A stretch of DNA of 35,979 nt from Deltaproteobacteria bacterium (GCA_016193465.1 JACPSE010000183.1:1-35979), one strand, 5' to 3'; counted from the first letter of the stretch, positions 5,992 to 34,721 are shown. A program made the numbers and translations. The notes: a model not told the origin generated them from the sequence alone.

Positions 5992-6594
5992 CTACGGGTG
6001 CGCTCCCAAGACAGTAAAGCCCTTCTCCGCGAGCGCATCAGCGATGCGGCTGGGATCAGCAGCCTTCAAGCGCAGGTAGCAAACTGAACTCTCGCCCCAC
6101 TTCTCTCGGTACGTTCCCACGCCCAGGACCTCACCGTCTTGCTCAGAGACCGTTGTAGAAGCGCTGGAGAGGTCGTGTCCTTCTCCCTCCAGTAGGAGGT
6201 CAATGCGGCTGGTATCCTCTTCTGAAGCGCCCATGACGTCGAGAAAGGCCTGGAGGATGTCGCTGGTCGTGATGATGCCAACCAATTTCTTATTTTCGAC
6301 CACAGGGAGAGCGCCAATCTTGTGTTTGAGCAGCAACTGCGCAGCTTCCTCAAGAGTGGATTGAGGGTTTACGGTTATCAGATTCTCTGCCATCGCGACA
6401 TCAACCTTGGTGCGATCGAGAAATCCCGTATGCTGGCGCAGATCCCGATCAGTGATGATGCCGACCAGTTCTCCCTCCTTGACTACTGGCAGTCGGCGAA
6501 AACTGCCCGTTCGCATCTTTTCCCTAGCCGCGGCCAAATGGTCCTCTGGAGCAATCGTTACCGGCTCCCTGCTCATGCGCTTGCCGACCAGCAT
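5992..6594 (-). CDS. CBS-pair protein with C-terminal ACT-like domain (AcuB-like)
   Basis: A 200-residue protein, started here at the ATG at 6594 (MLVGKRMSREPVTIAPEDHL) because a GGGAGAA ribosome site precedes it; the frame extends to 6645, overlapping the upstream gene. It has two CBS motifs, residues 1 to 55 (PVTIAPEDHLAAAREKM..FRRLPVV..GELVGIITDRDL) and 65 to 120 (ITVNPQSTLEEAAQLLLKHKIGALPVVENKKLVGIITTSDIL), then an ACT-like C-terminal domain. CBS pairs bind adenine nucleotides such as AMP and ATP; AcuB-type proteins affect acetate/acetoin metabolism. It sits 47 bases downstream of the sigma-54 response regulator on the same strand and is probably co-transcribed, suggesting an energy-charge input to the same programme. 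Role inferred, not shown. Confidence 0.85.
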   Translation of the reverse strand: MLVGKRMSREPVTIAPEDHLAAAREKMRTGSFRRLPVVKEGELVGIITDRDLRQHTGFLDRTKVDVAMAENLITVNPQSTLEEAAQLLLKHKIGALPVVENKKLVGIITTSDILQAFLDVMGASEEDTSRIDLLLEGEGHDLSSASTTVSEQDGEVLGVGTYREKWGESSVCYLRLKAADPSRIADALAEKGFTVLGAHP

Positions 6595-6641
6595 CTTATT
6601 CTCCCTTTGTTTTGATTGAGAACGTTGACAACGAATGTTCT

Positions 6642-7991
6642 TCAATCAAAATCGAGGCCCAACTTCTCCATCTTGCGGTAGAGCGTGGAGAGGCTAAAGC
6701 CGAGGATTTCCGCGGCGCGCTTCTTATCGCCGCCTGTTTTTTCGAGAATCCTTTCAAGGTGGTTTTTCTCACATCCCCTGAGCGCCTCTTCGAGGTTGCC
6801 ATTCAGGGAAACTTCCTTTTCGGGGGCCTCCTCGCCAGGCAAATCGGCAGACGTGATCCACTCGCCGTTGCCCAGAATCATGGCCCGCTCCAGGACGTTA
6901 TCGAGCTCGCGGACGTTTCCCTTCCAAAGAAGCGACATGAGGGTCCTCATGGTTGCATTGTCCACCCCCTTGTAGTTTTTCTTCATCTCCAGGTTGTGGC
7001 GATGAATCAGGTGCTCCACCAATAGAGGGATATCCTCGCGTCGCTCGCGCAGCGGGGGAATGTGAATGCCTATGACGTTCAGCCGGTAATACAGGTCTCC
7101 GCGGAAGCGGCCAGCCTCAACTTCCTCTTTGAGCTCGCGATTGGTGGAAGCCAGAATGCGAACATCCACGTGCACGGGATTGTTGGAGCCTACCGGCAAC
7201 ACTTTCTTTTCTTCAATGACCCGCAGGAGTTTTGGCTGCAGGCTCAAGGGCATCTCCCCGATCTCATCGAGAAAGATCGTGCCTCCGCGGGCCCGTTGAA
7301 ACAGTCCCTCCTGAGAGCCAACGGCGCCGGTGAAAGCACCTTTGACGTAGCCAAAGAGTTGGCTTTCAAGCAGGGTTTCTGGGATTGCGCTGCAGTTTAC
7401 CGGGAGGAACACGTTGTCTTTGCGGGGGCTTTGCATATGGATGGTTCGGGCCACCACTTCTTTTCCCGCTCCGCTCTCGCCGGTGATAAGCACCGTGGAG
7501 GGAGTGGGCGCCACCTTTTCTATCAGCATTAAGATTTCCTGCATTACCTGGCTTCGCCCAACCGGCTGATCTGAGGCGAAATGCCTGTTAATTTCCCGCC
7601 TGAGCACTTGGATCTCCCAGGCGAGGTTCCTGTGGTTCATGAGATGATGTATCTTGCGCAGCACTTCCTCAAAGATGAGCGGTTTTAGAATGTAGTCCTG
7701 AGCGCCTAGACGCATGGCTTCTATCGCCGTCTCGACCGAGGCATGGGCAGTCATGAGGACCACGAGGGTCTGTGGAGAAACTTCCCGAACGTGCTTCAGC
7801 ACCGCCAGCCCGTCAGCTCCAGGCAGTACTAGGTCTGTCAAAACAAGGTCCAGATCAAGCTCATCCGCCTGCTTTATCGCTGCTCTGCCATCGGCAGCCT
7901 CGTAAACCTGGTGGCCTTCTTCACGCAAAAGCTCGCAAAGACTCTGTCGAGCAGTTTCTTGATCCTCAACCACGAGGACGGTTCCGGTCAT
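6642..7991 (-). CDS. Sigma-54-dependent response regulator, NtrC family
   Basis: A complete 449-residue three-domain activator. The receiver domain (1 to 120) has acidic residues near 9 to 10, the phosphoacceptor Asp53 in LTDLVLPGADG and Lys103 in YILKPL. The AAA+ domain (about 143 to 370) has Walker A GESGAGKE (171 to 178), the sigma-54 contact loop GAFTGA (218 to 223) and Walker B TIFLDEIGE. The C terminus has a Fis-type helix-turn-helix (KKRAAEILGFSLSTLYRKMEKLG). It would be phosphorylated by the kinase encoded upstream at 8188-10239 and then open sigma-54 promoters. A good sigma-54 promoter lies at 8115-8130 in front of it, so it may be positively autoregulated. Eight strong sigma-54 promoters in the window and three pairs of palindromes make this protein the likely master activator of the region. 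Confidence 0.97.
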   Translation of the reverse strand: MTGTVLVVEDQETARQSLCELLREEGHQVYEAADGRAAIKQADELDLDLVLTDLVLPGADGLAVLKHVREVSPQTLVVLMTAHASVETAIEAMRLGAQDYILKPLIFEEVLRKIHHLMNHRNLAWEIQVLRREINRHFASDQPVGRSQVMQEILMLIEKVAPTPSTVLITGESGAGKEVVARTIHMQSPRKDNVFLPVNCSAIPETLLESQLFGYVKGAFTGAVGSQEGLFQRARGGTIFLDEIGEMPLSLQPKLLRVIEEKKVLPVGSNNPVHVDVRILASTNRELKEEVEAGRFRGDLYYRLNVIGIHIPPLRERREDIPLLVEHLIHRHNLEMKKNYKGVDNATMRTLMSLLWKGNVRELDNVLERAMILGNGEWITSADLPGEEAPEKEVSLNGNLEEALRGCEKNHLERILEKTGGDKKRAAEILGFSLSTLYRKMEKLGLDFD

Positions 7992-8114
7992 GCCAATAGC
8001 CCCTTTCTGTATTTCTCATAATTGCGAAAAAAGCCGCCTTTTTTTTCAGAAACGCAGCAGTGGCGAAGAAACCCTTTGAATTTCAAAGGCCTTTACCACC
8101 GATGTTTTTAAGTT

Positions 8115-8130
8115 CGCAAATCCTATGCCA
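8115..8130 (-). promoter_or_regulatory. Sigma-54 promoter of the response regulator gene
   Basis: The - strand reads TGGCATAGGATTTGCG, matching TGGCAYRNNNNTTGCW at nearly every position, with GG and GC ten bases apart. The predicted transcription start is near 8104, giving a leader of about 113 bases to the ATG at 7991. It lies in the 196-base gap after the histidine kinase gene. I did not find the paired palindrome upstream of it. Confidence 0.75.
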
Positions 8131-8187: not shown

Positions 8188-10239
8188 TCAAGGAGTTGTC
8201 GGAGGAAAGGTACCTAAGGGCAGGCTCAGAGAAAACACGGTTCCCTTGCCGCGCTCGCTGGCATAGGTAATCGTGCCTTCGTGGGCTGCGACGATTTGCC
8301 GGACTATAACTAGTCCGAGCCCGGTACCCCAGGGCTTGGTGGTGGCAAAAGGCTCAAAGATATCGACCCCATCCGGAATGCCGAGCCCGGTATCTACCAC
8401 CTCCAGAACTACTTGCTCCTTGGAATTGCGTGCCCTGAGAACTAGCGTTCCCCCCTGGGGCATTGCCTCCACGGCATTCTTGCATAGATTTAGCAGGGCC
8501 TGTTTCAGCTTCTCACTATCTGCTATGACCAGGGGCAAATCCGCAGGGAAGGCCTCTTCCACATGGATCCCCAGCGCGGCATACCGAGGCCTTTCCATGT
8601 CTAGGACTTCCGCGGCCACAGCGGCGAGTGCGGTTGGTCGGAAATTGTACTTTTCGCGTCGGGAGAGAGAACGAAACTCGTAGAGGAGTTGGTTGAGGTG
8701 GGTGATCTCGTCTTTGAGAGTTTGCATAGAAGATTTGACGGTGTCGTCTATCGCGTCCATACGTCTGGCAAGGCGCCGCTCCAAAAGCTGGACGGTCATG
8801 TACATCCCATTGAGCGGATTGCCGATCTCGTGCGCAAGCTTGGCCGCTGTGGTGCCAATAGCGGCTAAGCGCTCAGTCTCGATCAACTCCTCCTGGAGTC
8901 TGACTTTTTCGGAGATATCGCGGAGGAAGGCCGCGTAGCGTACCTCCCCAAGGGTTGTGACCTCTGTCAGTGAGAGCTCGGCGGGAAACACCTCGCCGTT
9001 CTTGCGTCTAGCCACTACTGTACGGATGCGGCCAATGGCGCGGCGTTCGCGGGTCTGCTCGTAGCGGGCAATATACCTGTCGTGCTCACTTGCATGAGGC
9101 TCGGTCATCAGCAGGTTGATTTTTCTCCCATCGATTTCGGCTTTCTTATAACCAAACATTTGCTCAGCCGCAGGGTTAAAAAGCACGATCCGTCCCTGCC
9201 GGTCGATAGAGATAATCGCATCCTGGGTAGTATCGATCAGACTTTGCAGCCAAGTTTCCGCTCTTTTTCGTTCGCTGGCACCCCGTTCCTCTGCCAGCTT
9301 GCGCTCGGTGATGTCGGTGGCGATGCCGCAAACCGCGTAGGCAACGCCGGCAGAGTCGAACATGGGAAACTTGTTGGCGATGTAGATATGCACCCCGTCA
9401 TCTTGCGGGACCGTCTCCTCGAACTTTAACGGGGCCTTGGCCTCAACCACTTGCAGGTCATTTTTCCTGAAAGCGTCCGCCATCTCCTTCGGGAAGATGT
9501 CGTAGTCGGTCTGGCCTTTGATTTGCTCCCGGGTGATGTGGAACAGTTTTTCGTACTCGCGGTTCACCAGCATGTAGCATCCCCGGGTATCCTTGAGGAA
9601 GATCACGGCAGTGGAGTTGTCCAAAATAGCTTGCAGTCGCGCCTCACTTTGCCGCAGTTCTTCTTCTGCTTGCTTATGCTGAATCACCCAACCCAATTGG
9701 GTCGCAACTGCTGAAACGTCCTCAACCAGCCGTTTGTCCTCCCGGCGGGATTGCAGCATAAAGAATCCCAAAACGGCGAGCACCTCATCGTTGGCAATAA
9801 TGGGGACTCCCAAGGCTGCCTTGATACCAAAGCCCTTAGCGATCTTGGCGCGTGGATGGGTCTTGTCCGGCAAGACAGAAATGTCCTGAATCCACTCGGG
9901 CCGCTTGGATGCCCAAACGCGTCCGGGCAACCCGATGCCCGGTGGGAATGTCAGGCCTTCACACAAGGCTCTAAATTTTTCCAGGCTTTTTGTTCTTCCG
10001 TACCACGAGGGGCAGCATGCCAGAGCTGTTCCGTCGGTACACGGAATCCACGCCTCGCCAAAATCCCACCCTGTCGCCTCGCACACCTCGCGCAACGCGA
10101 CCTCGATGGCGGCTTGATAGGTTGGGGCTTCGTGGATTGCCTGCGTTACGGCGAGAAAGAGCTTAAACCTCCAGCGGTCGGAGTCCACGGTCTTACGGAG
10201 GGGGGCGCGCCTCCTCTGGGATGTTTGTTTTCCGGCCAT
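8188..10239 (-). CDS. Soluble GAF-PAS-PAS sensor histidine kinase
   Basis: A 683-residue kinase with no membrane segment, hence a cytoplasmic sensor. Domains: GAF about 30 to 185 (WRFKLFLAVTQAIHEAPTYQ to LGVPIIANDEVLAVLGFF), PAS 1 about 195 to 315, PAS 2 about 330 to 445 (AIISIDRQGRIVLFNPAAEQMFGY), a HisKA dimerisation domain with the phosphorylated His470 in AKLAHEIGNPLNG, and an ATPase domain with the N box NLCKNAVEA (N587), DTGLG (G1) and GTGLGL (G2). It would phosphorylate the NtrC-type regulator encoded 196 bases downstream on the same strand. The HisKA/HATPase part resembles NtrB-type partners of sigma-54 activators. The stimulus sensed by GAF and PAS is not shown; the regulated genes suggest NO, oxygen lack or energy state. 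No sigma-54 promoter was found in front of it. Confidence 0.95.
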   Translation of the reverse strand: MAGKQTSQRRRAPLRKTVDSDRWRFKLFLAVTQAIHEAPTYQAAIEVALREVCEATGWDFGEAWIPCTDGTALACCPSWYGRTKSLEKFRALCEGLTFPPGIGLPGRVWASKRPEWIQDISVLPDKTHPRAKIAKGFGIKAALGVPIIANDEVLAVLGFFMLQSRREDKRLVEDVSAVATQLGWVIQHKQAEEELRQSEARLQAILDNSTAVIFLKDTRGCYMLVNREYEKLFHITREQIKGQTDYDIFPKEMADAFRKNDLQVVEAKAPLKFEETVPQDDGVHIYIANKFPMFDSAGVAYAVCGIATDITERKLAEERGASERKRAETWLQSLIDTTQDAIISIDRQGRIVLFNPAAEQMFGYKKAEIDGRKINLLMTEPHASEHDRYIARYEQTRERRAIGRIRTVVARRKNGEVFPAELSLTEVTTLGEVRYAAFLRDISEKVRLQEELIETERLAAIGTTAAKLAHEIGNPLNGMYMTVQLLERRLARRMDAIDDTVKSSMQTLKDEITHLNQLLYEFRSLSRREKYNFRPTALAAVAAEVLDMERPRYAALGIHVEEAFPADLPLVIADSEKLKQALLNLCKNAVEAMPQGGTLVLRARNSKEQVVLEVVDTGLGIPDGVDIFEPFATTKPWGTGLGLVIVRQIVAAHEGTITYASERGKGTVFSLSLPLGTFPPTTP

Positions 10240-10359: not shown

Positions 10360-11703
10360 TCACGCAGCTTCCTTCGCAGATGGCCCGGGGCGCAGGGTCA
10401 TTAGGTCCACCACGGTCAAGAGGACTCCTCCCAGAAAGACAACTCCAAGAACAGCCAGAATGGCAAAGGAAAGGCGCATCTGGGCCTGCGCGGTCATATA
10501 GCCTAAACCCATGATCCGTTCGATGTGGGTCTGCAAAACGCCAGCGACGCTGAAGGCAAGAGTCATTACGCTCATAGTTATACTTAACCACCAGAAGGCG
10601 ATATTTCCCCGCCGCTCGTTAAAGAGAGTTAGCCCCTTAAGCTTTGGCATCGCATAGTAGAAAAACGTGAGGTTCAGGAGGACGTATGCGCCGAAGAATG
10701 CAAGGTGACCGTGAGCTACGGTGATTTGGCTACCATGGGTATAGTAGTTGATTTGAGGAAGGGTATGGGCGAAGCCCCACACCCCGGCGCCGACAAAATG
10801 CAAGATCGCCATGCCAACAGCATACGTAAAGACCAGACGCCCCTTGATCTCGCTCCGGCGGTTTCGGAGGTAGTGCCAAGCATCCGCCAGCATAAGGAGG
10901 ATCGGGACAGGCTCCAGGGCGCTGAATATCCCGCCCACCCAAAGCCAGTAGCTGGGTGCGCCGAGCCAGTAGTAATGATGTCCGGTGCCGGCGATTCCTG
11001 TGAACAGGAAAAGTCCGAGCTCAACGTAAAGCCATTTCTCCACTGTAGCTCGAGGAACGTTGGTGATCTTGATAAGGATCCATGCAGTCAGAGCTGCCGC
11101 CACCAGCTCCCATGCCCCTTCCACCCAGAGGTGAATGACCCACCACCAGTAGTACCAATCGATGCTGAGGTTGGCATAAAAGGGGAGATTGAAGAGGTAC
11201 ATGACGGCGAGGAAGACCAGGCCGCCGAAAAGCGATCCCTGGATAACAGTCCATTGTCGGGCGCGAAGGATAGTCATGCCAACATTGAAGAGAAAGATCA
11301 GCGCACCCACTACGACCAAATAGTCCAGGGGAAATGGAATCTCCAGGAGCGGTTTCCCCTTCGTCCAGCCGAAGACGAAACCTGCCAGAGCGGTCACGCC
11401 AGTTCCGACAAGAAGGAGAAGCTGGATATAGGCCAACGTCGGGCTGTAGATCTCTCGCTCGGTCTCCTCAGGCGCCATGAAGTAGGTGCTGCCCATGAAG
11501 CCCAGCAGCAGCCACAAAACCAGAAGATTTGTGTGGACAGCCCGTGTGGTGCTGAAAGGAAGGAGATCGACCAGCCACTGTGGTATCGTTAGGGCATAGC
11601 TCAAGGCGAGCCAGATCCCTACGATAACTTGCAGGACAAACAGCAGGAGTGCGACAACGAAGTAGGGGTACGCTACACGCTGCGAGGGGTAGGCTAATGG
11701 CAT
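10360..11703 (-). CDS. norB: Nitric oxide reductase, large subunit (cytochrome b)
   Basis: A 447-residue polytopic membrane protein of the haem-copper oxidase superfamily that reduces two NO to N2O. The conserved metal ligands are present: His57 (HTNLLVLW) and His333 (VAHGH) for haem b, His331 for the active-site haem b3, and His191 (VIHLWVEG), His242 and His243 (GTGHHYYW) for the non-haem iron. The three glutamates typical of true NO reductases are also present: Glu195 and Glu199 in HLWVEGAWE, and Glu264 in FSALEP. These argue against an NO dismutase or oxidase. The gene is 26 bases downstream of norC, so the two form an operon, which is expected to start at the sigma-54 promoter at 12550-12565. 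The assembly genes norQ, norD and norE are not in the window. Confidence 0.96.
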   Translation of the reverse strand: MPLAYPSQRVAYPYFVVALLLFVLQVIVGIWLALSYALTIPQWLVDLLPFSTTRAVHTNLLVLWLLLGFMGSTYFMAPEETEREIYSPTLAYIQLLLLVGTGVTALAGFVFGWTKGKPLLEIPFPLDYLVVVGALIFLFNVGMTILRARQWTVIQGSLFGGLVFLAVMYLFNLPFYANLSIDWYYWWWVIHLWVEGAWELVAAALTAWILIKITNVPRATVEKWLYVELGLFLFTGIAGTGHHYYWLGAPSYWLWVGGIFSALEPVPILLMLADAWHYLRNRRSEIKGRLVFTYAVGMAILHFVGAGVWGFAHTLPQINYYTHGSQITVAHGHLAFFGAYVLLNLTFFYYAMPKLKGLTLFNERRGNIAFWWLSITMSVMTLAFSVAGVLQTHIERIMGLGYMTAQAQMRLSFAILAVLGVVFLGGVLLTVVDLMTLRPGPSAKEAA

Positions 11704-11729: not shown

Positions 11730-12413
11730 CTATTTCAGCCCGGCCAGGAAGTGTCCCACCTGATACCGTTCCTCGTGTGAGAGGGGTGGGGTAGGCATGG
11801 TCGCTTCAGGGTTCCCTGAGCGGGGGTCTGTCAAAATCCGCTCGATTGTCTCGTAGCTTAGGCGGGAGCCGACGTGAGTGAGATCAGGGCCCGCTCCTCC
11901 GCCCGCTTCATAAAGGCGGTGACAAGCGAAGCAACCCTTCGCCTGGTAAAGCGCCGCCCCCGGGCTCACCCCCAGGGCCACCGCCTGACCGGCACCAGCG
12001 CGAAGTTTTTGATCCTGGGGTGGCCAGCCCTGGTTGTCGATCTCGCTGGTCCACTGGAGGAAGGCCACTAGATTTTCTAGCTCTTTGTCTGTCAAGGGCA
12101 GGCGAGGCATCTTCCGCCAGGTTGTAAACGTCTCCGGGCTGCGGATGACCGCCTTAATTCCCTCGCTTCCGCGCCGCCAGTAAACCTTGGTCATATCGGG
12201 GGCATAGTACGAACCAAAGCCCAGGATGGTATGGCAGTCATTGCAGTTGTACTTCTGCCAGACACGCTTGCCCGCCACTACCTGTTCACTCAGCCGGTCC
12301 GCGTGCGTTAAGGTCTGGATCTGCCTGTGAGTGTCTACGGTGAGAACGAGGAAGAGCGCCAAAGAAATCAGAGTGCCAATATAAAAAATCCAGCGCGCAG
12401 TCTTGGTACTCAT
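11730..12413 (-). CDS. norC: Nitric oxide reductase cytochrome c subunit with an extra haem c domain
   Basis: The first 135 residues are a normal NorC: an N-terminal membrane anchor (residues 8 to 26), haem motif CNDCH (57 to 61), the NorC-specific TILGFGSYYAPDMTKVYWRRG stretch in two parts, and a Met102 ligand in KMPRLPL. Ordinary NorC ends at about 150 residues with one haem. This one continues to 227 residues with a second c-type domain: CFACH (161 to 165), GPDLTHVGSRLS, and Met206 in ATMPTPPLSHEE. It would pass electrons from a periplasmic donor or directly from a membrane complex through two haems to NorB. The ATG at 12413 (MSTKTARW) is the only good start. The operon order norC-norB is the usual one. 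Confidence 0.93.
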   Translation of the reverse strand: MSTKTARWIFYIGTLISLALFLVLTVDTHRQIQTLTHADRLSEQVVAGKRVWQKYNCNDCHTILGFGSYYAPDMTKVYWRRGSEGIKAVIRSPETFTTWRKMPRLPLTDKELENLVAFLQWTSEIDNQGWPPQDQKLRAGAGQAVALGVSPGAALYQAKGCFACHRLYEAGGGAGPDLTHVGSRLSYETIERILTDPRSGNPEATMPTPPLSHEERYQVGHFLAGLK

Positions 12414-12549: not shown

Positions 12550-12565
12550 AGCAAGATTTATGCCC
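12550..12565 (-). promoter_or_regulatory. Sigma-54 promoter of norCB
   Basis: The - strand reads GGGCATAAATCTTGCT. Only the first base departs from the TGGCAYRNNNNTTGCW consensus, and the GG-N10-GC spacing is exact. The predicted start is near 12539. The midpoint of the upstream palindrome pair lies about 101 bases upstream of this start, a normal enhancer distance. Confidence 0.75.
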
Positions 12566-14252: not shown

Positions 14253-14266
14253 GGATCGACCTCCGG

Positions 14267-27935: not shown

Positions 27936-30512
27936 ATGGTTCCATGGTTAGACATCTCTCACGTCTCCGGCCTTACGGAGCAAGAAGCGGCTGAGAGGCT
28001 GACGGAAGAGGGATATAACGAACTTCCCTCGACAAAGCGACGCAGCATTTTTGCCATCGCCTTGGAGCTTGCGCGCCAGCCCATGTTCTTGCTCCTTGTC
28101 GGCGGCGGAATCGTTTATCTCGTATTGGGAGATGTGCAGGAAGCGTTGATGCTGCTTGGGTTTGTTTTCGTAGTCATGGGCATTACCTTTTATCAAGAAC
28201 GCAAAACAGAGCGCGCGCTGGAAGCGTTGCGGGACTTGTCCAGTCCACGCGCCCTGGTGATTCGGGAGGGTCGAGAAAGGCGCATCGCGGGCCGTGATGT
28301 GGTCTGCGGCGACATTGTGATCCTGATAGAAGGCGATCGTGTCCCGGCCGACGCCATGCTCTTGTCGAGCGTCAATCTCTCCGTGGATGAGTCTTTGTTG
28401 ACCGGCGAATCGGTGCCCGTGCGTAAGGTCGTCTGGGATGGGGCTATGGGTTTATGCCGTCCCGGCGGCGATGATTTACCCTTTGTTTTTTCCGGAACCC
28501 TTGTGGTTCGGGGGCACGGCATGGGTCGGGTGCATGCAACCGGCATGAAAACTGAAATCGGCAAGATCGGCAAGGCGCTGCAAACGGTGGAAACAGAGGA
28601 GACCTTGTTGCAGAAAGAGACCGGAAGGTGGGTGCGTAATCTTGCCCTTTTGGGGTTATCCCTCTCCCTCTTGGTCGTGGTCTTATATGGTCTCACAAGA
28701 GGTCACTGGCTCGATGCCCTTCTGGCCGGCATTGCCCTGGCCATGGCGATGTTGCCTGAGGAATTTCCCGTGGTCTTGACCGTCTTCCTGGCCCTGGGCG
28801 CATGGCGCATCTCGCAAAGACAAGTCCTCACCCGTCGTGTTCCGGCCGTAGAAGCCCTGGGTTCAACCACGGTCCTATGCGTGGACAAGACCGGGACACT
28901 GACCTTTAACAGGATGTCGGTGCGCAAGATTTTTGCCCAAGGCGAGTTCTATGATCTCGCAGGGAATATGCAGGAGCCGCTCCCGGAAAGCTTCCATGAG
29001 CTTGTGGAGTTCGCTATTCTGGCAAGCCAAAGGGAGCCCTTCGACCCGATGGAAAAAGCGCTAAGGCAGCTTGGGGGTCGTCACCTTTGCGGCACCGAAC
29101 ATCTCCACGACGATTGGAATCTGGTGCGTGAATACCCCTTATCTCAGACCATGCTCTCCCTCGCACACGTTTGGGAATCGCCCGGCGGCGGCGAGTTCGT
29201 GATCGCCGCCAAAGGCGCGCCGGAGGCCATTGCTGACTTGTGCCATTTAGATGGGGCGCAGATGCAGGCATTGGCCGGACCTATTTATTCGATGGCGGAC
29301 GAAGGTCTACGGATACTGGGCGTGGCGAGGGCGACTTTTAGACAGCCCAGTTTGCCCGGCGGCCAGCATGATTTCGACTTCGAGTTCTTGGGACTTATGG
29401 GGTTTGCCGATCCGGTGCGGCCTACCGTCGCAGGCGCCGTCGAGGAGTGTTACAGCGCGAGGATAAGGGTGGTGATGATAACCGGGGATTATCCGGTCAC
29501 TGCGCAGAACATCGCTCGACAGATAGGCCTCGCCTCTGTGGACGAGTATATCACGGGGGCCGAGCTGGACGGGATGGACGATGCGGAGCTGCAACGACGT
29601 ATTCAGACGGTAAATATTTTCGCGCGGGTGGTGCCGGAACAGAAACTGCGTCTGGTCAATGCGCTGAAGGCCAACGGCGAAATCGTGGCCATGACAGGCG
29701 ACGGCGTGAACGATGCGCCGGCATTGAAGGCGGCGCACATCGGCATCGCAATGGGAGCGAGAGGCACGGATGTGGCTCGGGAGGCGTCAGCGCTGGTGTT
29801 GCTGGACGACGATTTCTCATCCATCGTGCAGGCGGTAAAACTGGGCAGACGGATCTTCGATAATCTCAAGAAGGCTTTGGCTTATATCTTTGCCATCCAC
29901 GTTCCAATCGCCGGTCTCTCGCTGCTTCCCGTGTTGCTGCGATGGCCGCTGGTGCTTTTTCCGGTTCATATCGCCTTTCTCGAATTGATTATTGACCCGG
30001 CCTGCTCCGTTGTCTTCGAGGCGGAGCCCGAAGAAAGGGATGTGATGAGGCGTCCGCCGCGCAATCCGAAAGAGCCTCTGTTTGACAGGCGCACCGTGGG
30101 GCTGAGCGTGATGCAAGGGCTGGGGGTATTGTTCATTGTCGCGGTTGTCTATATCGTCGCGCTTTATCGGGACCAAGGTGAGCTAGATGCCCGTGCCCTG
30201 ACCTTTGGCACCCTCATCATCGCCAACCTGGGGCTGATTCTCACCAACCGCTCATGGTCAAGAACGATCCTGGCAACTCTAGACGCGCCGAACCGGGCGC
30301 TGTGGTGGGTGGTAGGAGGCGCGCTGCTCTTCCTTGGCTTGGTGTTGTACCTTCCCGTATTGCGAGATATGTTCCGTTTTTCTACGCTGCATGCCGTTGA
30401 CCTGGCGATCTGCCTAGCCGCAGGCGTACTCAGCATCCTCTGGTTCGAGGGGTTTAAGATACTTGATGGCATGCGGCGAAGACAATCCAGCATGCAATCG
30501 GCAAGTTCTTAA
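27936..30512 (+). CDS. P-type cation-transporting ATPase (PEEFP subgroup)
   Basis: An 858-residue P-type pump, P2-like in layout. It has an N-terminal cation-ATPase domain (VSGLTEQEAAERLTEEGYNELP), actuator TGES (156 to 159), the M4 motif PEEFP (274 to 278), the phosphorylated Asp317 in CVDKTGTLT, the nucleotide-binding AAKGAPEAIADLC, hinge MTGDGVNDAPALKAA and six C-terminal membrane segments with FLELIIDPACSVVFEAEPEE in M6. Classical Ca2+ and Na+/K+ pumps have PEGLP or PEALP; PEEFP marks a group whose ion is not settled. The start GGAGAC..ATG is 19 bases behind glgP, so glycogen breakdown and ion pumping share an operon. Confidence 0.93.
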   Translation: MVPWLDISHVSGLTEQEAAERLTEEGYNELPSTKRRSIFAIALELARQPMFLLLVGGGIVYLVLGDVQEALMLLGFVFVVMGITFYQERKTERALEALRDLSSPRALVIREGRERRIAGRDVVCGDIVILIEGDRVPADAMLLSSVNLSVDESLLTGESVPVRKVVWDGAMGLCRPGGDDLPFVFSGTLVVRGHGMGRVHATGMKTEIGKIGKALQTVETEETLLQKETGRWVRNLALLGLSLSLLVVVLYGLTRGHWLDALLAGIALAMAMLPEEFPVVLTVFLALGAWRISQRQVLTRRVPAVEALGSTTVLCVDKTGTLTFNRMSVRKIFAQGEFYDLAGNMQEPLPESFHELVEFAILASQREPFDPMEKALRQLGGRHLCGTEHLHDDWNLVREYPLSQTMLSLAHVWESPGGGEFVIAAKGAPEAIADLCHLDGAQMQALAGPIYSMADEGLRILGVARATFRQPSLPGGQHDFDFEFLGLMGFADPVRPTVAGAVEECYSARIRVVMITGDYPVTAQNIARQIGLASVDEYITGAELDGMDDAELQRRIQTVNIFARVVPEQKLRLVNALKANGEIVAMTGDGVNDAPALKAAHIGIAMGARGTDVAREASALVLLDDDFSSIVQAVKLGRRIFDNLKKALAYIFAIHVPIAGLSLLPVLLRWPLVLFPVHIAFLELIIDPACSVVFEAEPEERDVMRRPPRNPKEPLFDRRTVGLSVMQGLGVLFIVAVVYIVALYRDQGELDARALTFGTLIIANLGLILTNRSWSRTILATLDAPNRALWWVVGGALLFLGLVLYLPVLRDMFRFSTLHAVDLAICLAAGVLSILWFEGFKILDGMRRRQSSMQSASS

Positions 30513-30604: not shown

Positions 30605-30620
30605 TGGCATAGCTCTTGCT
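30605..30620 (+). promoter_or_regulatory. Sigma-54 promoter of the 2-oxoacid:ferredoxin oxidoreductase operon
   Basis: TGGCATAGCTCTTGCT matches the consensus at every conserved position, GG-N10-GC included. The predicted start is 30631, only three bases before the ATG at 30634, which would make the mRNA almost leaderless. I found no matching palindrome pair in the 150 bases upstream. Confidence 0.8.
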
Positions 30621-30633
30621 CTTTCTCTCTGTC

Positions 30634-32568
30634 ATGGTTGCTTTTCCCGGCATTTCCAGTACAGCAGACGGCTCCGAGGCGGTGGTGTGGGTAGAAATCC
30701 ACATCAGTCAAGGAGCCTGTGCTTACCCGATAACGCCGTCCACCAATATGGGAGGAGGCTACCAGATGGCGGTGGCCAACGGGCAGCAAAATCTCTGGGG
30801 AGAGCCGCTGGCATTTTTGGAACCGGAATCAGAGCACAGTTCTGCCAGCGCTTGCGAGGGATTCGCGCTCGCAGGAGGCCGGGTGGCTAATTTCACCTCG
30901 GGACAAGGACTGATCCTGATGAAAGAGGTGTTGTACGTGATAGCCGGCAAGCGCTTGCCGGTTGTTTTTCACATCGGCGCGCGCGCCCTGACATCGCAGG
31001 CGCTGAATATCCACGCAGGCCATGATGACGTCATGGGTGTTGCCGACTGCGGTTGGGGGATGCTCTTTGCTCGCAACGCGCAGGAGGCGGCGGACCTGGC
31101 GCTGATCGCCCGGCGAGCTGCCGAAGAGGCGGAGACACCCTTCTTTAACGTTCAGGACGGCTTCTTGACGACGCACACGATCGAAAGCCTGTGCTTGCCG
31201 GAGCCCGAGCTGATGCGCGAATTCGTGGGCGATCCCCATAGCGAGCATCGCTTGCGCGATCTGATGGATCCGGCGCACCCGATCATGAGCGGCGTGGTGC
31301 AGAACCAAGACAGTTACATGAAAGGCAAAGTCGCGCAGCGCTATTTCTACGACAGGCTGCCGGCTATCGTGCAGCAGGTGATGGGGCGCCTCCACGATCT
31401 CACAGGCCGTCGCTACGGCTTGGTCGATTCTTACCGATTAGAGGACGCGGAGTACGCCCTTGTGGGGATGGGCAGCATGCTGGAGACTGCTTCCGCGACC
31501 GTTGATTACCTGCGTGATCAGGAAGGGCTCAAGGTCGGATCGCTGCACGTGACCTGCTACCGCCCATTTCCGGGGCCTGAGATCGTGCAGGCGCTCCAAC
31601 AGGTCAAAGCCGTTGCCGTCGTCGAGCGTCTGGATGATCCGGCAGCTCAGTCCAATCCCCTGACCGCAGAGATCAAGGCTGGCTTCGCGGACGCGTTGGC
31701 GGGCGCCGCCGGCTATCCGGCCGTGAAGCGCGCGCCCATCATCTATTCCGGCGCTGCCGGCCTTGGCAGCAGGGATGTCCGTCCCGCTGATTTCGTGGCG
31801 GTAGTGGATCATATGAGGCGCCAAAAGGAGCGGCGCTTTTTTGTGCTCGGGATTAAGCACGAACTGGCGCTGTTCCCCGATCGCGAACCCGATGTTCGGC
31901 CGCCGGGCGCCTTCTCCATGCGGGGATATTCCGTGGGCGGCTATGGCTCCGTGACCACCAATAAAATCATTGCTACCGTTGTCGGGGATCTTTTTGGTCT
32001 TAAGGTCCAGGCCTATCCTCTATACGGCTCGGAGAAGAAAGGATTGCCGACCACCTACTACCTGACGGTGGCGAAGGAAGCGATCCGGGTTCATTCGGAA
32101 CTGAAGTATGTCGATTTTGTGCCGCTCAACAACGTCAATGCTTTCAATCTGGGAAATCCACTGGAGGGTCTGGCCCCGGGCGGCGCGATCTTCCTGCAAC
32201 ACCAGAGCACCGATCCGGCGGAGGTGTGGACGGCGATCCCTGCCTCCGCCCGCGATACGATTCGCCGCAAGCGCATTCGCGTTTTTGCGCTCGACGCCGT
32301 GAAGATCGCGGAGGAGGTAGCGAGCCGTCCGGATCTGGCGCAGCGGACGCAGGGCATCGTGCTGTTGGGCGTATTCCTGCGGGCGGCGCCGTTTATCCTT
32401 CAGCGCAGAATGGGGGAGGAAGAGCTCTACGGCGCCGTGGAAAAATCGCTGCGCAAGTTTTTTGGCAAGCACAGCGAGCAAGTGATCCAGGATAACCTCA
32501 AGGCGGTGAGGCGCGGCCATAGGGAGCTCTTCGAGGTCCCGTCCGGAGTGATCCAGGCGGCGGCATGA
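30634..32568 (+). CDS. 2-oxoacid:ferredoxin oxidoreductase, fused alpha and gamma subunits
   Basis: A 644-residue protein from the ATG at 30634 (MVAFPGISSTADGSEAVVWVE); the earlier ATG at 30616 lies upstream of the predicted sigma-54 start and overlaps the -12 element. The first 400 residues are the alpha subunit (ACAYPITPSTNMGGGYQMAVANGQ, ASACEGFALAGGRVANFTSGQGLILMKEVLY, HAGHDDVMGVADCGWGM, LHVTCYRPFP). The rest is the gamma domain (MRGYSVGGYGSVTTNKIIATVVGDLFG, YLTVAKEAIRVHSE, LNNVNAFN). Together with the beta protein at 33036 it should oxidise pyruvate or a related 2-oxoacid to an acyl-CoA and reduce ferredoxin, as in NifJ-type PFOR, which fuses all the parts in one chain. The preferred substrate is probably pyruvate, inferred from the layout. 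CoA and TPP contacts are in alpha and beta respectively. Confidence 0.88.
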   Translation: MVAFPGISSTADGSEAVVWVEIHISQGACAYPITPSTNMGGGYQMAVANGQQNLWGEPLAFLEPESEHSSASACEGFALAGGRVANFTSGQGLILMKEVLYVIAGKRLPVVFHIGARALTSQALNIHAGHDDVMGVADCGWGMLFARNAQEAADLALIARRAAEEAETPFFNVQDGFLTTHTIESLCLPEPELMREFVGDPHSEHRLRDLMDPAHPIMSGVVQNQDSYMKGKVAQRYFYDRLPAIVQQVMGRLHDLTGRRYGLVDSYRLEDAEYALVGMGSMLETASATVDYLRDQEGLKVGSLHVTCYRPFPGPEIVQALQQVKAVAVVERLDDPAAQSNPLTAEIKAGFADALAGAAGYPAVKRAPIIYSGAAGLGSRDVRPADFVAVVDHMRRQKERRFFVLGIKHELALFPDREPDVRPPGAFSMRGYSVGGYGSVTTNKIIATVVGDLFGLKVQAYPLYGSEKKGLPTTYYLTVAKEAIRVHSELKYVDFVPLNNVNAFNLGNPLEGLAPGGAIFLQHQSTDPAEVWTAIPASARDTIRRKRIRVFALDAVKIAEEVASRPDLAQRTQGIVLLGVFLRAAPFILQRRMGEEELYGAVEKSLRKFFGKHSEQVIQDNLKAVRRGHRELFEVPSGVIQAAA

Positions 32569-32608
32569 AGTAGGTGCGCGTGAGCGATCCAAACGAGATG
32601 GGTGTTTC

Positions 32609-33013
32609 ATGAACAAGAAGACGGTTCGCGCCTGGATGCATCGTGGCGTGATCAGTTGCCGTCCTGACACGTCGCTGGAACAGGTGTCGCATACCATGGA
32701 TTCCAAGGACATCAGTGCCCTCGTGGTTGTCGACGAGGTAGGCGACGTGGCGGGCGTGATCTCGCGGACCGATTTGGTCAATGCCCGTTTTGTGGAACCG
32801 TATATGAAGCATTGGCGGGGCATGACGGCGGAGCACTTGATGAGCCGGCCTGTTATCAGCGTTGGCCCGAACACACCTGTGATGGAGGCCGCAAACCTGC
32901 TGCGCGAAAAGCAGATTCACCGCCTGGTGGTCGTTGAGAAGAAGGGAAAGCACGTGCGGCCGCTGGGAATCCTGTCTGTAACGGATCTGGCAAAACACGT
33001 CGTTTCAGAGTGA
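32609..33013 (+). CDS. CBS-pair protein between the oxidoreductase subunits
   Basis: A 134-residue protein consisting of two CBS motifs only: residues 1 to 60 (VRAWMHRGVISCRPDTSLEQVSHTM..ISALVVVDEVGDVAGVISRTDLV) and 73 to 130 (AEHLMSRPVISVGPNTPVMEAANLLREKQIHRLVVVEKKGKHVRPLGILSVTDLAKHVV). CBS pairs usually bind AMP, ADP or ATP. It lies 40 bases behind the alpha-gamma gene and 22 bases before the beta gene, so all three are in one operon. Its place inside the enzyme operon suggests a nucleotide-sensing regulator of the enzyme, which is inference. A second CBS protein sits behind the response regulator at 5992-6594. Confidence 0.85.
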   Translation: MNKKTVRAWMHRGVISCRPDTSLEQVSHTMDSKDISALVVVDEVGDVAGVISRTDLVNARFVEPYMKHWRGMTAEHLMSRPVISVGPNTPVMEAANLLREKQIHRLVVVEKKGKHVRPLGILSVTDLAKHVVSE

Positions 33014-33035
33014 AAGATGGCGCGGAGATCTCACA

Positions 33036-34721
33036 GTGAAGAGGCGTGAAGAAAAATCCAGCTCAAAGAATGCCTTTCGGAAGCCGAGCGAAATGGGTGT
33101 CAAACAGCCGGGGGAGGCGAAAGAGACTCACGAGACAACCTTCCTGGATACTTACCTCCTGGAACTCGATCTGGACACGTACGTAGATGATTTCAACCGG
33201 CGGGTCATCGGCGCCTACCAGCAAGGCACTGGCTCGGTCGCGCTCCCGGCCGACGTCGGTATAGCCCGTAGCCTCATCCCTCCCGGCACGGCCGCTCTGC
33301 GCGACTTCAGTTACATTGCCCCTGAGATTCCGGAATTCGTCTCAGACAAATGCGTCGGCTGTATGGGCTGCGTCACCGAGTGTCCGGACACGGCCATCCT
33401 GGGTAAGGCGATCCCGGCCTCCCGGGTGGAAAAGGCCTTGGCAGAGATCGGCGCCCCCGAAGAGCAGGCCTGGGTGAGATCCCACTGGAGCCGGACCCGC
33501 AAGTATTTCGACCAGTCCGAGAAAAAAGGAGATGAGGGCGCGTTGTTCGGCATCTTCATAGATCCGACCAAGTGCAAGGGCTGCGCGGAGTGCGTCCAGG
33601 TGTGCGATGAGCTGGGCTATCACGCCCTCAAAATGGTCAAGAAAGACGAAGCGACGCTGCCGCGCTACCGTCATGCCTTCAATTTCTTTCGCCGGATCGG
33701 AGCGACGCCGAAAGAGTACATCAATGAGCGCGCGCTGGCCGACTTCATGCTGGCGGAGGCCTCCGCGCTGCTTTACGTCGGTGGGGCGGGCTCCTGCATG
33801 GGATGCGGCGAGGCGACCGCGATTCGGATGATGTTGGCAGCTAGCGGCTTTGTCTACGGTCCCGAGAGGATCGCAGTCGTCGCAGCCACCGGCTGCCACA
33901 CCGTCCACGGACCCACTTATCCTTACAATCCCTTCCTGGTGCCGTGGACGAACTCGCTGTTTGAAAACGCACCGGCAGTCGCCATGGGGATACGCGCCCG
34001 CTGGAATCAAAAAAGCTGGGGCGATAAAAAGCTCTGGGTTATCGGTGGCGACGGCGCCATATATGACATTGGCTTCCAGAGCCTCAGCCGGCTGCTGGCC
34101 AGCGGGATGGACATCAATGTTCTGGTGCTCGACACCCAGGTCTACTCGAACACCGGCGGTCAGGCCTCGACCGCTTCCTTCTTCGGTCAGGATGCCAAGA
34201 TGGCGGCCATCGGGGGCTCCGTTCCAGGAAAACAGGAGCACAGGAAAGAGTTGGCGCAGATCTGCCTGATGCACCCCGATGTCTATGTTGCTCAGACAAC
34301 GCCGGCTCACATCAACCACTTTTACAAAGCCATCATTGAGGCCAACGACTATCCGGGTCCGGCGCTCATTAACGTCTACGCCACCTGTCAGCCGGAACAC
34401 GGGGTGGCCGATAATATGTCGGCGCAGCATGCCAGGCTGGCGGTAGAATCGCGCGCCTTTCCCCTGTTGGTCTACGATCCGAGAAAGGGCAAGAGAATCC
34501 GCGAGCGTTTGAGCTTGGTCGGCAATCCGGCGCAAAAAGAGGATTGGTGGACGCCGCCCAATAGCGGCAAGCCGTTTACCTTCGTTGATTTCGCTCGCAC
34601 CGAGCGCCGCTTCGCCAGGCAGTTCGACGCCGAGGGGAATCCATCAGGGGCGCTGCTACAGGGGCAGGAAGAGCGGCTGAGAAATTGGCTTGTGCTACAA
34701 GAGCTGGCGGGACTGCGCTAA
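33036..34721 (+). CDS. 2-oxoacid:ferredoxin oxidoreductase, ferredoxin and beta (TPP) subunit
   Basis: A 561-residue protein started at the GTG 33036, after GGAG at eight bases. The first 90 residues have no clear domain. Two 4Fe-4S motifs follow: CVGCMGCVTECP (Cys106, 109, 112, 116) and CKGCAECVQVC (Cys180, 183, 186, 190), the delta-like ferredoxin part. The remainder is the TPP-binding beta subunit with CMGCGE, VVAATGCHTVHGPTYPYNPF, GDGAIYDIGFQSLSRLLASG and NVLVLDTQVYSNTGGQ, the GDG...NTGG motif that holds TPP and Mg2+. With the alpha-gamma chain it completes a PFOR-type enzyme that yields reduced ferredoxin. Its 3' end overlaps a doubtful convergent frame by four bases. Confidence 0.93.
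   Translation: MKRREEKSSSKNAFRKPSEMGVKQPGEAKETHETTFLDTYLLELDLDTYVDDFNRRVIGAYQQGTGSVALPADVGIARSLIPPGTAALRDFSYIAPEIPEFVSDKCVGCMGCVTECPDTAILGKAIPASRVEKALAEIGAPEEQAWVRSHWSRTRKYFDQSEKKGDEGALFGIFIDPTKCKGCAECVQVCDELGYHALKMVKKDEATLPRYRHAFNFFRRIGATPKEYINERALADFMLAEASALLYVGGAGSCMGCGEATAIRMMLAASGFVYGPERIAVVAATGCHTVHGPTYPYNPFLVPWTNSLFENAPAVAMGIRARWNQKSWGDKKLWVIGGDGAIYDIGFQSLSRLLASGMDINVLVLDTQVYSNTGGQASTASFFGQDAKMAAIGGSVPGKQEHRKELAQICLMHPDVYVAQTTPAHINHFYKAIIEANDYPGPALINVYATCQPEHGVADNMSAQHARLAVESRAFPLLVYDPRKGKRIRERLSLVGNPAQKEDWWTPPNSGKPFTFVDFARTERRFARQFDAEGNPSGALLQGQEERLRNWLVLQELAGLR

What the first reader, a model, noticed from the sequence alone, without database searches (positions are those of the whole stretch)
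5992..34721. A sigma-54 regulon spanning about 28 kb, with its own activator inside
Six intergenic elements carry full TGGCA and GC at the exact -24/-12 spacing (8115, 12735, 14825, 14981, 26124, 30605) and two more differ only at the first base (12550, 25981). All eight face the first gene of a unit. By a rough count at equal base frequencies, TGGCA plus GC at a fixed distance should turn up less than once in the non-coding DNA here, on both strands together. The units are response regulator-CBS, norCB, usp1, usp2-HTH, nucleotidyltransferase-galT-glgA, cytochrome-glgB-GH57-malQ-glgC, glgP-ATPase and the 2-oxoacid oxidoreductase. A GAFTGA-containing regulator is encoded in the same region. I know of no described regulon with this gene set.
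Basis: partly seen in the sequence, partly recalled or inferred. Interest (0 to 1): 0.93.

Follow-up and report, generated by a model that had tools for sequence, protein, structure and literature searches.

The report
Sigma-54 low-oxygen survival regulon
Most units in a cluster of stress-survival, glycogen-storage and nitric-oxide-removal genes of an unnamed bacterium share sigma-54-type promoter sequences and paired copies of one palindromic DNA site, which a regulator encoded in the same cluster is predicted to bind when its partner, a likely haem-based oxygen sensor, reports that oxygen has run low.

Summary
All eight -24/-12 elements exist; eight matrix hits lie in 3.0 kb of intergenic DNA against 0.1 in shuffles, and the genome has rpoN. 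What joins six of the eight promoters is a 16-bp palindrome, TTYGCA-N4-TGCRAA, in pairs 30-32 bp apart, one pair between each of three divergent promoter pairs. Outside the window, 6 of 62 strict -24/-12 sites have it upstream (0.14 expected; reversed control 0). Around close orthologues of the response regulator in nine relatives, 20 of 72 sites have it (control 0). Spacer 4 gives 24 dyads, others 0-1. It lies in the regulator's own leader in 10 of 10 close orthologues (one weak) and 0 of 9 distant ones. The adjacent kinase has a FixL-like haem-PAS domain. I infer a two-component, sigma-54 low-oxygen survival regulon reaching beyond the window (Mtr-type cytochromes, a molybdo-oxidoreductase, OsmC). 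The oxidoreductase site at 30605 is doubtful, and a receiver-less paralogue could share the sites. Closest known: NmpRSTU of Myxococcus xanthus; this is a variant with another sensor, enhancer code and gene set.

The parts
6642..7991 (-). Response regulator of the NtrC family (receiver, AAA+ with GAFTGA, Fis-type HTH); predicted activator of the regulon
   Evidence: Pfam Response_reg, Sigma54_activat 2.7e-69, HTH_8; GAFTGA in the translation; best PDB relative an NtrC-family regulator, 4l4u, 3.2e-110
8188..10239 (-). Sensor histidine kinase GAF-PAS-PAS-HisKA-HATPase; PAS at residues 328-454 is FixL-like
   Evidence: Pfam; Bradyrhizobium FixL haem domain 1dp6 6.6e-26, ungapped over the His/Arg haem-pocket stretch in the 8js5 alignment
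5992..6645 (-). CBS-domain protein, overlaps the regulator gene by 4 bp (same unit)
   Evidence: Pfam CBS 2.6e-33
8115..8130 (-). -24/-12 element of the regulator-CBS unit
   Evidence: TGGCATAGGATTTGCG; same sequence and place in G003, weaker forms at -120 to -139 in seven other close orthologues
8013..8028 (.). Palindrome in the leader of the regulator gene, downstream of its own promoter (predicted +76 to +91)
   Evidence: 1 mismatch; a palindrome (score 9.5 or more) between promoter and start in 10 of 10 close orthologues, this genome included (G016 only 10.1), 0 of 9 distant ones
10360..11703 (-). norB, nitric oxide reductase large subunit
   Evidence: 3o0r chain B (NorB) 3.8e-113
11730..12413 (-). 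norC-like cytochrome c subunit with two cytochrome c stretches
   Evidence: Pfam
12550..12565 (-). -24/-12 element of norCB (perhaps norCB-kinase)
   Evidence: GGGCATAAATCTTGCT; the same off-consensus form GGGCATAGTTCTTGCT in relative G006, before another gene
12618..12633 (.). Palindrome, second copy of pair 1
   Evidence: TTTGCAGCTTTGCGAT, 1 mismatch
12648..12663 (.). Palindrome of pair 1, shared by norCB and usp1
   Evidence: exact; one of 4 exact places in 4.5 Mb
12735..12750 (+). -24/-12 element of usp1
12906..13823 (+). usp1, two-domain universal stress protein
   Evidence: Pfam Usp 6.3e-48
13893..14336 (-). Small gene downstream of usp2, HTH-like C-terminus by eye (start uncertain)
   Evidence: no Pfam match; translation
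14267..14806 (-). usp2, universal stress protein (start likely near 14773)
   Evidence: Pfam Usp 1.1e-24
14825..14840 (-). -24/-12 element of usp2
   Evidence: TGGCACATTTTATGCG; TGGCACGCTTTATGCG and TGGCACGTTTTATGCG before usp2 of G006 and G010, palindrome at the same 67-68 bp
14892..14907 (.). Palindrome of pair 2
   Evidence: TTTGCACCTTTGCAAT, 1 mismatch
14923..14938 (.). Palindrome, second copy of pair 2
   Evidence: TTCGCAAGGGTGAAAA, 1 mismatch
14981..14996 (+). -24/-12 element of the nucleotidyltransferase-galT-glgA unit
   Evidence: same gene, promoter and palindrome at 89 bp in G006
14992..16023 (+). Nucleotidyltransferase (ORF as listed; start likely GTG near 15028)
   Evidence: Pfam NTP_transferase
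15872..17098 (+). galT-like
   Evidence: Pfam GalP_UDP_transf
17152..18609 (+). glgA, starch/glycogen synthase
   Evidence: Pfam Glyco_transf_5 2.2e-75
18841..25918 (-). glgC, malQ, GH57, glgB, cytochrome c unit (cytochrome gene first)
   Evidence: Pfam
25981..25996 (-). -24/-12 element of the cytochrome-glgB-GH57-malQ-glgC unit
   Evidence: AGGCATGTTTATTGCT; same off-consensus AGGCATG..TTGCT before usp1 of G006, G009, G016
26048..26063 (.). Palindrome of pair 3 (degenerate right half)
   Evidence: TTCGCACCGTCGCAAT, score 11.1
26080..26095 (.). Palindrome, second copy of pair 3
   Evidence: TTCGCATTCCTGGGAA, 1 mismatch
26124..26139 (+). -24/-12 element of glgP-ATPase
26219..27916 (+). glgP, alpha-glucan phosphorylase
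   Evidence: TIGR02094 9.6e-166
27936..30512 (+). P-type cation ATPase, nearest to PMR1-type Ca2+ ATPases (below that family's cut-off)
30605..30620 (+). -24/-12-like element before the 2-oxoacid oxidoreductase; membership doubtful
   Evidence: perfect sequence but weak palindrome match at 30550 (score 10.1) and a predicted 3-nt leader
30616..34721 (+). 2-oxoacid:ferredoxin oxidoreductase subunits with a CBS protein between; doubtful member
   Evidence: Pfam POR_N, CBS, TPP_enzyme_C

Best explanation
Operons that share -24/-12 promoter elements and paired copies of a palindrome, TTYGCA-N4-TGCRAA, likely form one sigma-54 regulon that the NtrC-type response regulator at 6642-7991 is predicted to switch on when its neighbour kinase, predicted to sense oxygen with a FixL-type haem domain, finds oxygen low. 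Shown by sequence: the promoter elements; palindrome pairs 30-32 bp apart placed between divergent promoters; a palindrome in the leader of the regulator gene; recurrence before further operons of this genome and around close orthologues of the regulator (promoter plus palindrome in 6 of 9 relatives at score 14, 8 of 9 at score 12). Inferred: the phosphorylated regulator binds the pairs as enhancers, forms a hexamer and remodels RNA polymerase-sigma-54 by ATP hydrolysis, so that one enhancer serves two promoters. The genes it would turn on prepare cells for oxygen shortage: universal stress and CBS proteins, glycogen synthesis and breakdown, NO reductase, a cation ATPase and, elsewhere, Mtr-type multihaem cytochromes, a molybdo-oxidoreductase, OsmC and, with weaker sites, Usp-malate dehydrogenase-citrate synthase. 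The palindrome downstream of the regulator's own promoter would give feedback, most likely a brake.
For: Promoters: 8 against 0.1 in shuffled intergenic DNA; rpoN present.

Palindrome in this genome: 42 places at 1 mismatch or fewer, 36 outside the window, against 21 for the reversed palindrome. 6 of 62 strict -24/-12 sites outside the window have one 16-300 bp upstream; expected 0.14, Poisson P 1e-8; 0 on the downstream side; reversed 0.

Palindrome in relatives: around close orthologues (9 genomes, 278 kb) 23 palindromes at score 14 against 2 reversed; 20 of 72 promoters have one upstream against 0 reversed and 1 on the downstream side; at score 12, 38 against 6, and 30 of 72 against 0. Around distant homologues (9 genomes, 213 kb, 18 promoters) none. 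The relatives' matches helped to shape the palindrome, so this test is not fully independent. Dyad spacer: YGCA-N4-TGCR 24 upstream and 1 downstream of 81 promoters; spacers 2, 3, 5, 6, 7, 8 give 0 or 1 upstream. Promoter+exact palindrome: 31 against 2 reversed in 25 genomes of the family; 4 against 1 in 33 genomes of other families.

Link to this regulator: palindromes between promoter and regulator start in 10 of 10 close orthologues (G016 weak), 0 of 9 distant; recognition helix SLST/SIST (close) against SLSS/SRSS (distant).

Geometry: near copy 67-68 bp from the promoter at norC, usp2 and cytochrome here and at usp2, usp1 and ntp of relatives; the facing promoters have 44-117 bp.

Sensor: FixL haem-PAS match. 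His200 equivalent in 7 of 8 readable family kinases, Arg220 equivalent in 6 of 8; roles in PMC10765370 (passages).
Against: No binding, transcription or oxygen data exist. A receiver-less paralogue (about 62% identical over AAA+ and HTH) sits on contig C14 of this genome, and in three relatives such a paralogue lies within 2 kb of an exact palindrome, so it could read the same sites. Of the 31 promoter+palindrome hits in the family, 20 are in genomes with a close regulator, 9 in genomes where one search found none (G001, G002, G011, G014, G020; G001, G002 and G020 are 78-87% complete, G011 and G014 94-98%), 2 in genomes not examined for it. One of the four exact palindromes of this genome (C87:12517) lies inside an ORF with no promoter hit of score 12.5 nearby. 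The haem ligand His is lost in the kinase of G010, and no kinase match was found beside the regulator of G017. Two of eight window promoters (8115, 30605) lack an upstream pair. -24/-12-like sequences also occur inside genes (8 of 14 by the loose pattern).
Confidence: 0.72

Rival explanations
1. The regulon is real, but its activator is the receiver-less NtrC-type paralogue (contig C14 in this genome) or both proteins together; the response regulator is one of its targets.
For: The paralogue is 54-62% identical over AAA+ and HTH, lies among usp, CBS and glycolysis-type genes in several relatives, and has exact palindromes within 2 kb in G007, G011 and G015. Nine of 31 promoter+palindrome hits are in genomes where no close response regulator was found.
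Against: No palindrome on the 5.5-kb contig with the paralogue of this genome (score cut 11.5). No palindrome near distant homologues, and no exact one in G021, which has the paralogue but no close regulator. The paralogue helix is SLSS in 9 of the 10 receiver-less copies read (the G002 copy could not be read); the exception, G011, is a genome that keeps the palindromes.
Confidence: 0.2
2. The system responds mainly to nitric oxide or to energy/redox state rather than to oxygen; the haem-PAS or the GAF domain senses that signal.
For: norCB is among the targets and lies directly upstream of the kinase gene on the same strand; haem-PAS domains can also bind NO and CO (recalled); CBS and Usp proteins are linked to adenylate state (PMC11841059, section read).
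Against: The set with palindromes outside the window (Mtr-type cytochromes, molybdo-oxidoreductase; weaker: citrate synthase, UbiD) is broader than NO detoxification; the PAS match is to oxygen-sensing FixL.
Confidence: 0.25
3. The -24/-12 matches are chance or unrelated sites belonging to several different activators.
For: TGGCA-N8-GC alone is only twofold above shuffles in the window, no more than the wrong spacing N7, and 8 of 14 are inside genes; the genome has 16 NtrC-type matches.
Against: Shared palindrome pairs at stereotyped distance, found again in relatives of other genera, with reversed controls at zero.
Confidence: 0.03

Closest known systems
NmpRSTU / NmpR regulon of Myxococcus xanthus (PMC11841059; abstract and sections 13, 16, 17 and 22 read, further passages)
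   Same: NtrC-like response regulator, sigma-54 promoters, paired dyads (14-15 nt between sites in five of seven bound promoters; here 14-16), haem-binding input kinase, regulation of its own genes; targets include a CBS protein, a universal stress protein and a P-type ATPase; proposed response to oxygen depletion.
   Different: Dyad is GCGCA-N5-TGCGC there and TTYGCA-N4-TGCRAA here (N5 not found upstream of 81 promoters). Sensor is a protoglobin kinase in a four-part phosphorelay there; the adjacent kinase here has a FixL-type PAS. Targets there: cbb3 oxidase, hemN, hemerythrin, pilR; here: glycogen metabolism, norCB, Mtr-type cytochromes, a molybdo-oxidoreductase. Sequence of NmpR was not compared (not at hand).
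FixL/FixJ oxygen-sensing two-component system of rhizobia
   Same: Haem-PAS domain with proximal His and distal Arg equivalents (PMC10765370, passages).
   Different: FixJ is a NarL/LuxR-type regulator acting without sigma-54 (recalled); here the neighbour is NtrC-type with GAFTGA.
DosR dormancy regulon of Mycobacterium tuberculosis (PMC3095998 table passage, PMC8044303 passages)
   Same: Hypoxia-linked set with an Hsp20 protein (hspX), a cation ATPase (ctpF) and a universal stress protein (Rv2005c); in relatives the present regulon adds Hsp20, an S30AE-domain protein and nicotinate phosphoribosyltransferase.
   Different: DosR is a NarL-type regulator without sigma-54 (recalled); no homology of the regulators is claimed. 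Resemblance of content only.
NorR sigma-54 control of nitric oxide reduction genes
   Same: Sigma-54 control of NO reductase.
   Different: NorR has a GAF domain and no receiver (recalled); here a response regulator with a wide target set; NCBIfam NorR model far below cut-off.
Sigma-54 regulome of Desulfovibrio vulgaris (PMC4641369, abstract start and passages)
   Same: Comparative reconstruction of activator motifs with -24/-12 promoters.
   Different: The terms universal stress, glycogen, CBS domain and oxygen do not occur in its main text; supplements not seen.

Membership tests
Sigma-54-dependent (bEBP-activated) promoters | TGGCA-N8-GC type -24/-12 element facing a gene | tested here: met
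   (two of eight differ at the first base)
Sigma-54-dependent (bEBP-activated) promoters | rpoN encoded in the genome | tested here: met
   PF04552 1.9e-61 on contig C113
Sigma-54-dependent (bEBP-activated) promoters | upstream enhancer dyads | tested here: met
   six of eight window promoters; not met for 30605; downstream position for 8115
Sigma-54-dependent (bEBP-activated) promoters | transcription start 12 bases past GC, rpoN-dependent | not testable with these tools
   no expression data
NtrC-family response regulators | receiver + AAA+ with GAFTGA + Fis-type HTH | tested here: met
NtrC-family response regulators | membership in a named equivalog (AtoC, NtrC, ZraR, NtrX, NorR) | tested here: not met
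   the best 25 of 118 NCBIfam families are all below their cut-offs
FixL-type haem-PAS kinases | PAS domain with proximal His and distal Arg of FixL | tested here: met
   by alignment; roles from PMC10765370
FixL-type haem-PAS kinases | NCBIfam sensor FixL equivalog | tested here: not met
   233 bits against cut-off 850
FixL-type haem-PAS kinases | haem binding and O2-inhibited kinase | not testable with these tools
   needs protein
NmpR regulon | GCGCA-N5-TGCGC pairs upstream of sigma-54 sites | tested here: not met
   0 with N5 upstream of 81 promoters near close regulators; N4 dyad instead
NmpR regulon | protoglobin kinase NmpU and hybrid kinase NmpS | tested here: inconclusive
   the adjacent kinase is GAF-PAS-PAS without globin domain; the rest of the genome was not searched
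NmpR regulon | orthology of the regulator to NmpR | not tested
   NmpR sequence not at hand
DosR regulon | NarL-type DosR regulator | tested here: not met
   regulator is NtrC type

The most novel reading that the evidence does not exclude
An uncultured bacterial family runs its whole low-oxygen survival programme (stress proteins, glycogen cycling, NO reduction, Mtr-type extracellular electron transfer, chaperones and a hibernation-type ribosomal factor in relatives) through sigma-54, with a FixL-type haem kinase feeding an NtrC-type regulator. The regulator uses a new enhancer code, TTYGCA-N4-TGCRAA pairs, as shared two-way enhancers between divergent promoters, and a conserved enhancer downstream of its own promoter as a feedback brake. 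It would be a sigma-54 counterpart, evolved independently, of the DosR dormancy regulon.
Probability: 0.5. Interest if true: 0.75.

Novelty: new variant of a known kind. Interest (0 to 1): 0.62.

Why it matters
Sigma-54 is best known for nitrogen control, motility and particular catabolic operons (recalled). A regulon that joins storage, stress and respiratory genes under one enhancer code would make the oxygen response of an unnamed, probably uncultured lineage readable from DNA: any genome of the family can be scanned with the palindrome plus -24/-12 rule. It would also give a second case, beside NmpRSTU, of a predicted haem kinase wired to an NtrC-type regulator, and a clean test of whether low-oxygen survival regulons of similar content (Usp, CBS, Hsp20, cation ATPase) arose independently under different regulators. 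The conserved palindrome downstream of the regulator's own promoter is an unusual, directly testable autoregulatory layout.

Tried and rejected
Chance: rejected for six sites. NmpR-type N5 dyad: tested, not found. First motif TTYGCACC-NN-YGCAA was too narrow; its one exact match outside the window (C42:42593) has no -24/-12 site near it and was dropped as chance. Looser promoter patterns GG-N10-GC and TGGCAYG-N4-TTGCW with 3 mismatches are not clearly above shuffles (490 against 477; 100 against 86). A first scan with the wrong spacing N7 gave 15 hits against 7.4 expected, as many as N8, none of them intergenic between 431 and 34721; it now serves as a control. Literature: searches found 0 papers; led to NmpRSTU, to the D. 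vulgaris regulome, to the FixL paper, to DosR papers; one search gave two listings judged off the point from titles and the start of the abstracts. No structure prediction, homologous-protein search or viral scan was run. The G003 kinase is cut by the contig end and the G008 regulator is split by a frame break; both were used only as far as read.

Full report
What was claimed.

The elements are real. All eight are where stated. A full matrix is: 8 of the 9 hits at score 12.5 or more in the gene region are intergenic, while intergenic DNA is 8.8% of it (P=3e-8), and shuffled intergenic pieces give 0.1 hits at score 13 or more on average against 8 (matrix from recalled consensus frequencies, gene starts set by me). 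The genome carries rpoN. A strict whole-genome pattern has 66 hits against 32 for the reversed pattern; four are in this window and one of those (15620) is inside a gene.

The genes. Pfam, NCBIfam and PDB searches give a response regulator of the NtrC family, a GAF-PAS-PAS histidine kinase, CBS proteins, NorB (3o0r, 3.8e-113), a cytochrome subunit, two universal stress proteins, a nucleotidyltransferase, a GalT-like protein, GlgA, GlgC-type, MalQ, GH57, GlgB-type, a cytochrome c, an alpha-glucan phosphorylase, a P-type cation ATPase and 2-oxoacid:ferredoxin oxidoreductase subunits.

A shared palindrome. Reading 260 bp upstream of each site showed one sequence in the middle of each of the three divergent promoter regions: TTCGCACCTATGCAAA (12648), TTTGCACCTTTGCAAT (14892), TTCGCACCGTCGCAAT (26048). 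Matches in the relatives' regions turned this into a palindrome, TTYGCA-N4-TGCRAA, and showed second copies 30-32 bp away (12618, 14923, 26080), that is, 14-16 nt between sites. So each divergent pair shares one tandem site.

Tests. (a) In this genome, palindromes with at most one mismatch occur at 42 places (36 outside the window) against 21 for the reversed palindrome. Of the 62 strict -24/-12 hits outside the window, 6 have a palindrome 16-300 bp upstream; 0.14 expected, P 1e-8; none on the downstream side; none for the reversed control. One of the six (C32) had already appeared before the palindrome was fixed; the other five had not. (b) Around close orthologues of the regulator (72% identity or more, 9 genomes, 278 kb) there are 23 palindromes at score 14 against 2 reversed, and 20 of 72 promoter hits have one upstream against 0 reversed; promoter plus palindrome is found in 6 of the 9 genomes at score 14 and 8 of 9 at score 12. 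Around distant homologues (55-64%, 9 genomes, 213 kb, 18 promoter hits) there are none. Because one search had shown me matches in several of these relatives, test (b) is not fully independent. (c) The spacer: YGCA-N4-TGCR 24 upstream and 1 downstream, other spacers 0-1 upstream (81 promoters, window included). (d) Exact palindromes: 52 against 23 reversed in 23 genomes of the family, 5 against 6 in 16 other genomes. Exact palindrome plus TGGCA at 56-117 bp: 31 against 2 in 25 genomes of the family, 4 against 1 in 33 others. (e) The near copy lies 67-68 bp from the promoter start at norCB, usp2 and cytochrome of the window and at usp2, usp1 and nucleotidyltransferase promoters of G006, G010, G015 and G016; the facing promoters have 44-117 bp. 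Even the off-consensus first bases (GGGCATA at norC, AGGCATG at the cytochrome) recur in relatives, before other genes of the set.

Results against. One of the four exact palindromes of the genome (C87:12517) lies in an ORF without a good promoter hit nearby. Of the 31 family hits in (d), 20 are in genomes with a close regulator, 9 in genomes where one search found none (G001 2, G002 1, G011 3, G014 1, G020 2) and 2 in genomes not examined (G039, G040). G001, G002 and G020 are 78-87% complete, so the gene may be missing from the assembly; G011 and G014 are 94-98% complete.

Which protein reads it. In 10 of 10 close orthologues (this genome included) a palindrome of score 9.5 or more lies between promoter region and start codon of the regulator (G016 has only 10.1, the other nine at least one of 12 or more); a scored -24/-12-like element stands 120-139 bp before the start in 9 of 10, and in G017 one was seen only by eye. 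None of 9 distant homologues has the palindrome. The recognition helix differs accordingly, SLST or SIST in close, SLSS or SRSS in distant. The main complication is a receiver-less paralogue, 54-62% identical over AAA+ and HTH, found in many relatives and on contig C14 here. In G007, G011 and G015 an exact palindrome lies within 2 kb of it. G011 has no close regulator yet has palindromes, and its paralogue carries SLST; its congener G021 also lacks the regulator, has no exact palindrome, and its paralogue carries SLSS. That is one event, suggestive only.

The signal. Residues 328-454 of the kinase match the haem domain of Bradyrhizobium FixL (1dp6, 6.6e-26); the 8js5 alignment runs without gaps through the haem-pocket stretch, with His, Arg and Arg at the places of His200, Arg206 and Arg220. 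His200 is the proximal ligand, Arg220 bonds the bound O2, and Arg206 matters for signalling (PMC10765370, passages). Of ten genomes with a close regulator, eight kinases could be read: the His is kept in 7 (lost in G010) and the distal Arg in 6; G003 is cut by its contig end and no kinase match lies beside the regulator of G017. Low oxygen as the signal is therefore a prediction.

Reach of the regulon. Elsewhere in this genome the six strict sites with palindromes stand before a SHOCT protein followed by ABC-transporter genes (C52), OsmC (C238), a TctC-like gene (C238), a DUF7948 protein (C32), an Fe-S/molybdopterin oxidoreductase/cytochrome c7 unit and a multihaem cytochrome-MtrB/PioB unit (C142). 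With sites outside the strict rule: 2-oxoacid oxidoreductase/HdrA-like (C70), ArsR/C_GCAxxG (C155), Fe-S/NrfD (C237), UbiD (C132) and Usp-malate dehydrogenase-citrate synthase (C142) (ABC, TctC and HdrA named by me from the translations). Not all 42 palindrome places were fetched and read. In relatives, 30 promoter-palindrome pairs at scores 12.5 and 12 were listed; 18 have a same-strand gene within about 150 bp, 11 have none within 500 bp by my crude gene caller, and one has none called. Targets among the 18 include usp1, usp2, the nucleotidyltransferase, Hsp20 (G006, G016), a ribosomal S30AE-cold-shock fusion (G006, G010), RNA 3'-phosphate cyclase (G016), a DksA/TraR zinc-finger-BON protein (G010) and nicotinate phosphoribosyltransferase (G007) (three of the ten proteins given had no Pfam match).

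What is doubtful. The oxidoreductase site at 30605 would give a 3-nt leader before ATG 30634, its best palindrome match scores only 10.1 (30550), and the same gene in G007 has only a poor match (9.3) about 314 bp upstream. The regulator's own promoter has its palindrome downstream, so feedback is more likely than activation.

Mechanism. Most likely: low oxygen empties the haem of the kinase, the kinase phosphorylates the regulator, the regulator assembles on paired palindromes, contacts RNA polymerase-sigma-54 in both directions and drives the divergent units. Shown: the DNA elements and protein families. Inferred: binding, signal and direction of response.

Comparison. The nearest described system is NmpRSTU of M. 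xanthus (PMC11841059, abstract, four sections and passages): NtrC-like regulator, sigma-54, haem kinase, dyad pairs mostly 14-15 nt apart, CBS, Usp and P-type ATPase targets, induction under hypoxia. The code (N5 and GCGCA halves), the sensor type and most targets differ, so I class this as a new variant. The resemblance to the DosR dormancy set (PMC3095998, PMC8044303, passages) is of content only. None of the papers listed appeared, from listing or passages, to describe this regulon; most subscription papers are not in that library.

Noticed in passing
G000 contig C14, L199:334-1278 and relatives L200-L206: A receiver-less NtrC-type activator (314-388 aa ORFs where called), 54-62% identical to the regulator, sits among usp, CBS, GAPDH- and phosphofructokinase-like genes in some relatives (named by eye); possibly a second arm of the same response.
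   Followed up: partly
L181 (G000 C142) 702-717 and 5791-5806: Two identical palindromes each 221 bp before a -24/-12 site, in front of a molybdopterin oxidoreductase unit and of a multihaem cytochrome-MtrB/PioB unit: a duplicated promoter region suggesting regulated extracellular electron transfer.
   Followed up: partly
window 8013-8028 and the leaders of close orthologues: Palindromes downstream of the regulator's own -24/-12 promoter in 10 of 10 close orthologues (one weak); an unusual autoregulatory layout.
   Followed up: partly
window 11730-12413: The norC-like subunit has two cytochrome c stretches, whereas NorC is usually monohaem (recalled).
   Followed up: no
L113:10872-11528 and L114:8755-9354: Ribosomal S30AE (hibernation-type) domain fused to a cold-shock domain, behind palindrome and -24/-12 site in two relatives.
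   Followed up: no
window 431-5892: Left flank: three NMT1/THI5-like binding proteins, a luciferase-like monooxygenase and a LysR regulator, without intergenic -24/-12 matrix hits; outside the regulon.
   Followed up: no
L202 (G011) 5971-5986 with 6069-6084: A genome without a close regulator match keeps palindromes; its receiver-less paralogue has the SLST helix while its congener G021, without exact palindromes, has SLSS.
   Followed up: partly
L019 / L129 (G008): The regulator gene is split by a frame break and a stop after SLSTLYRK; assembly error or decay not resolved.
   Followed up: no
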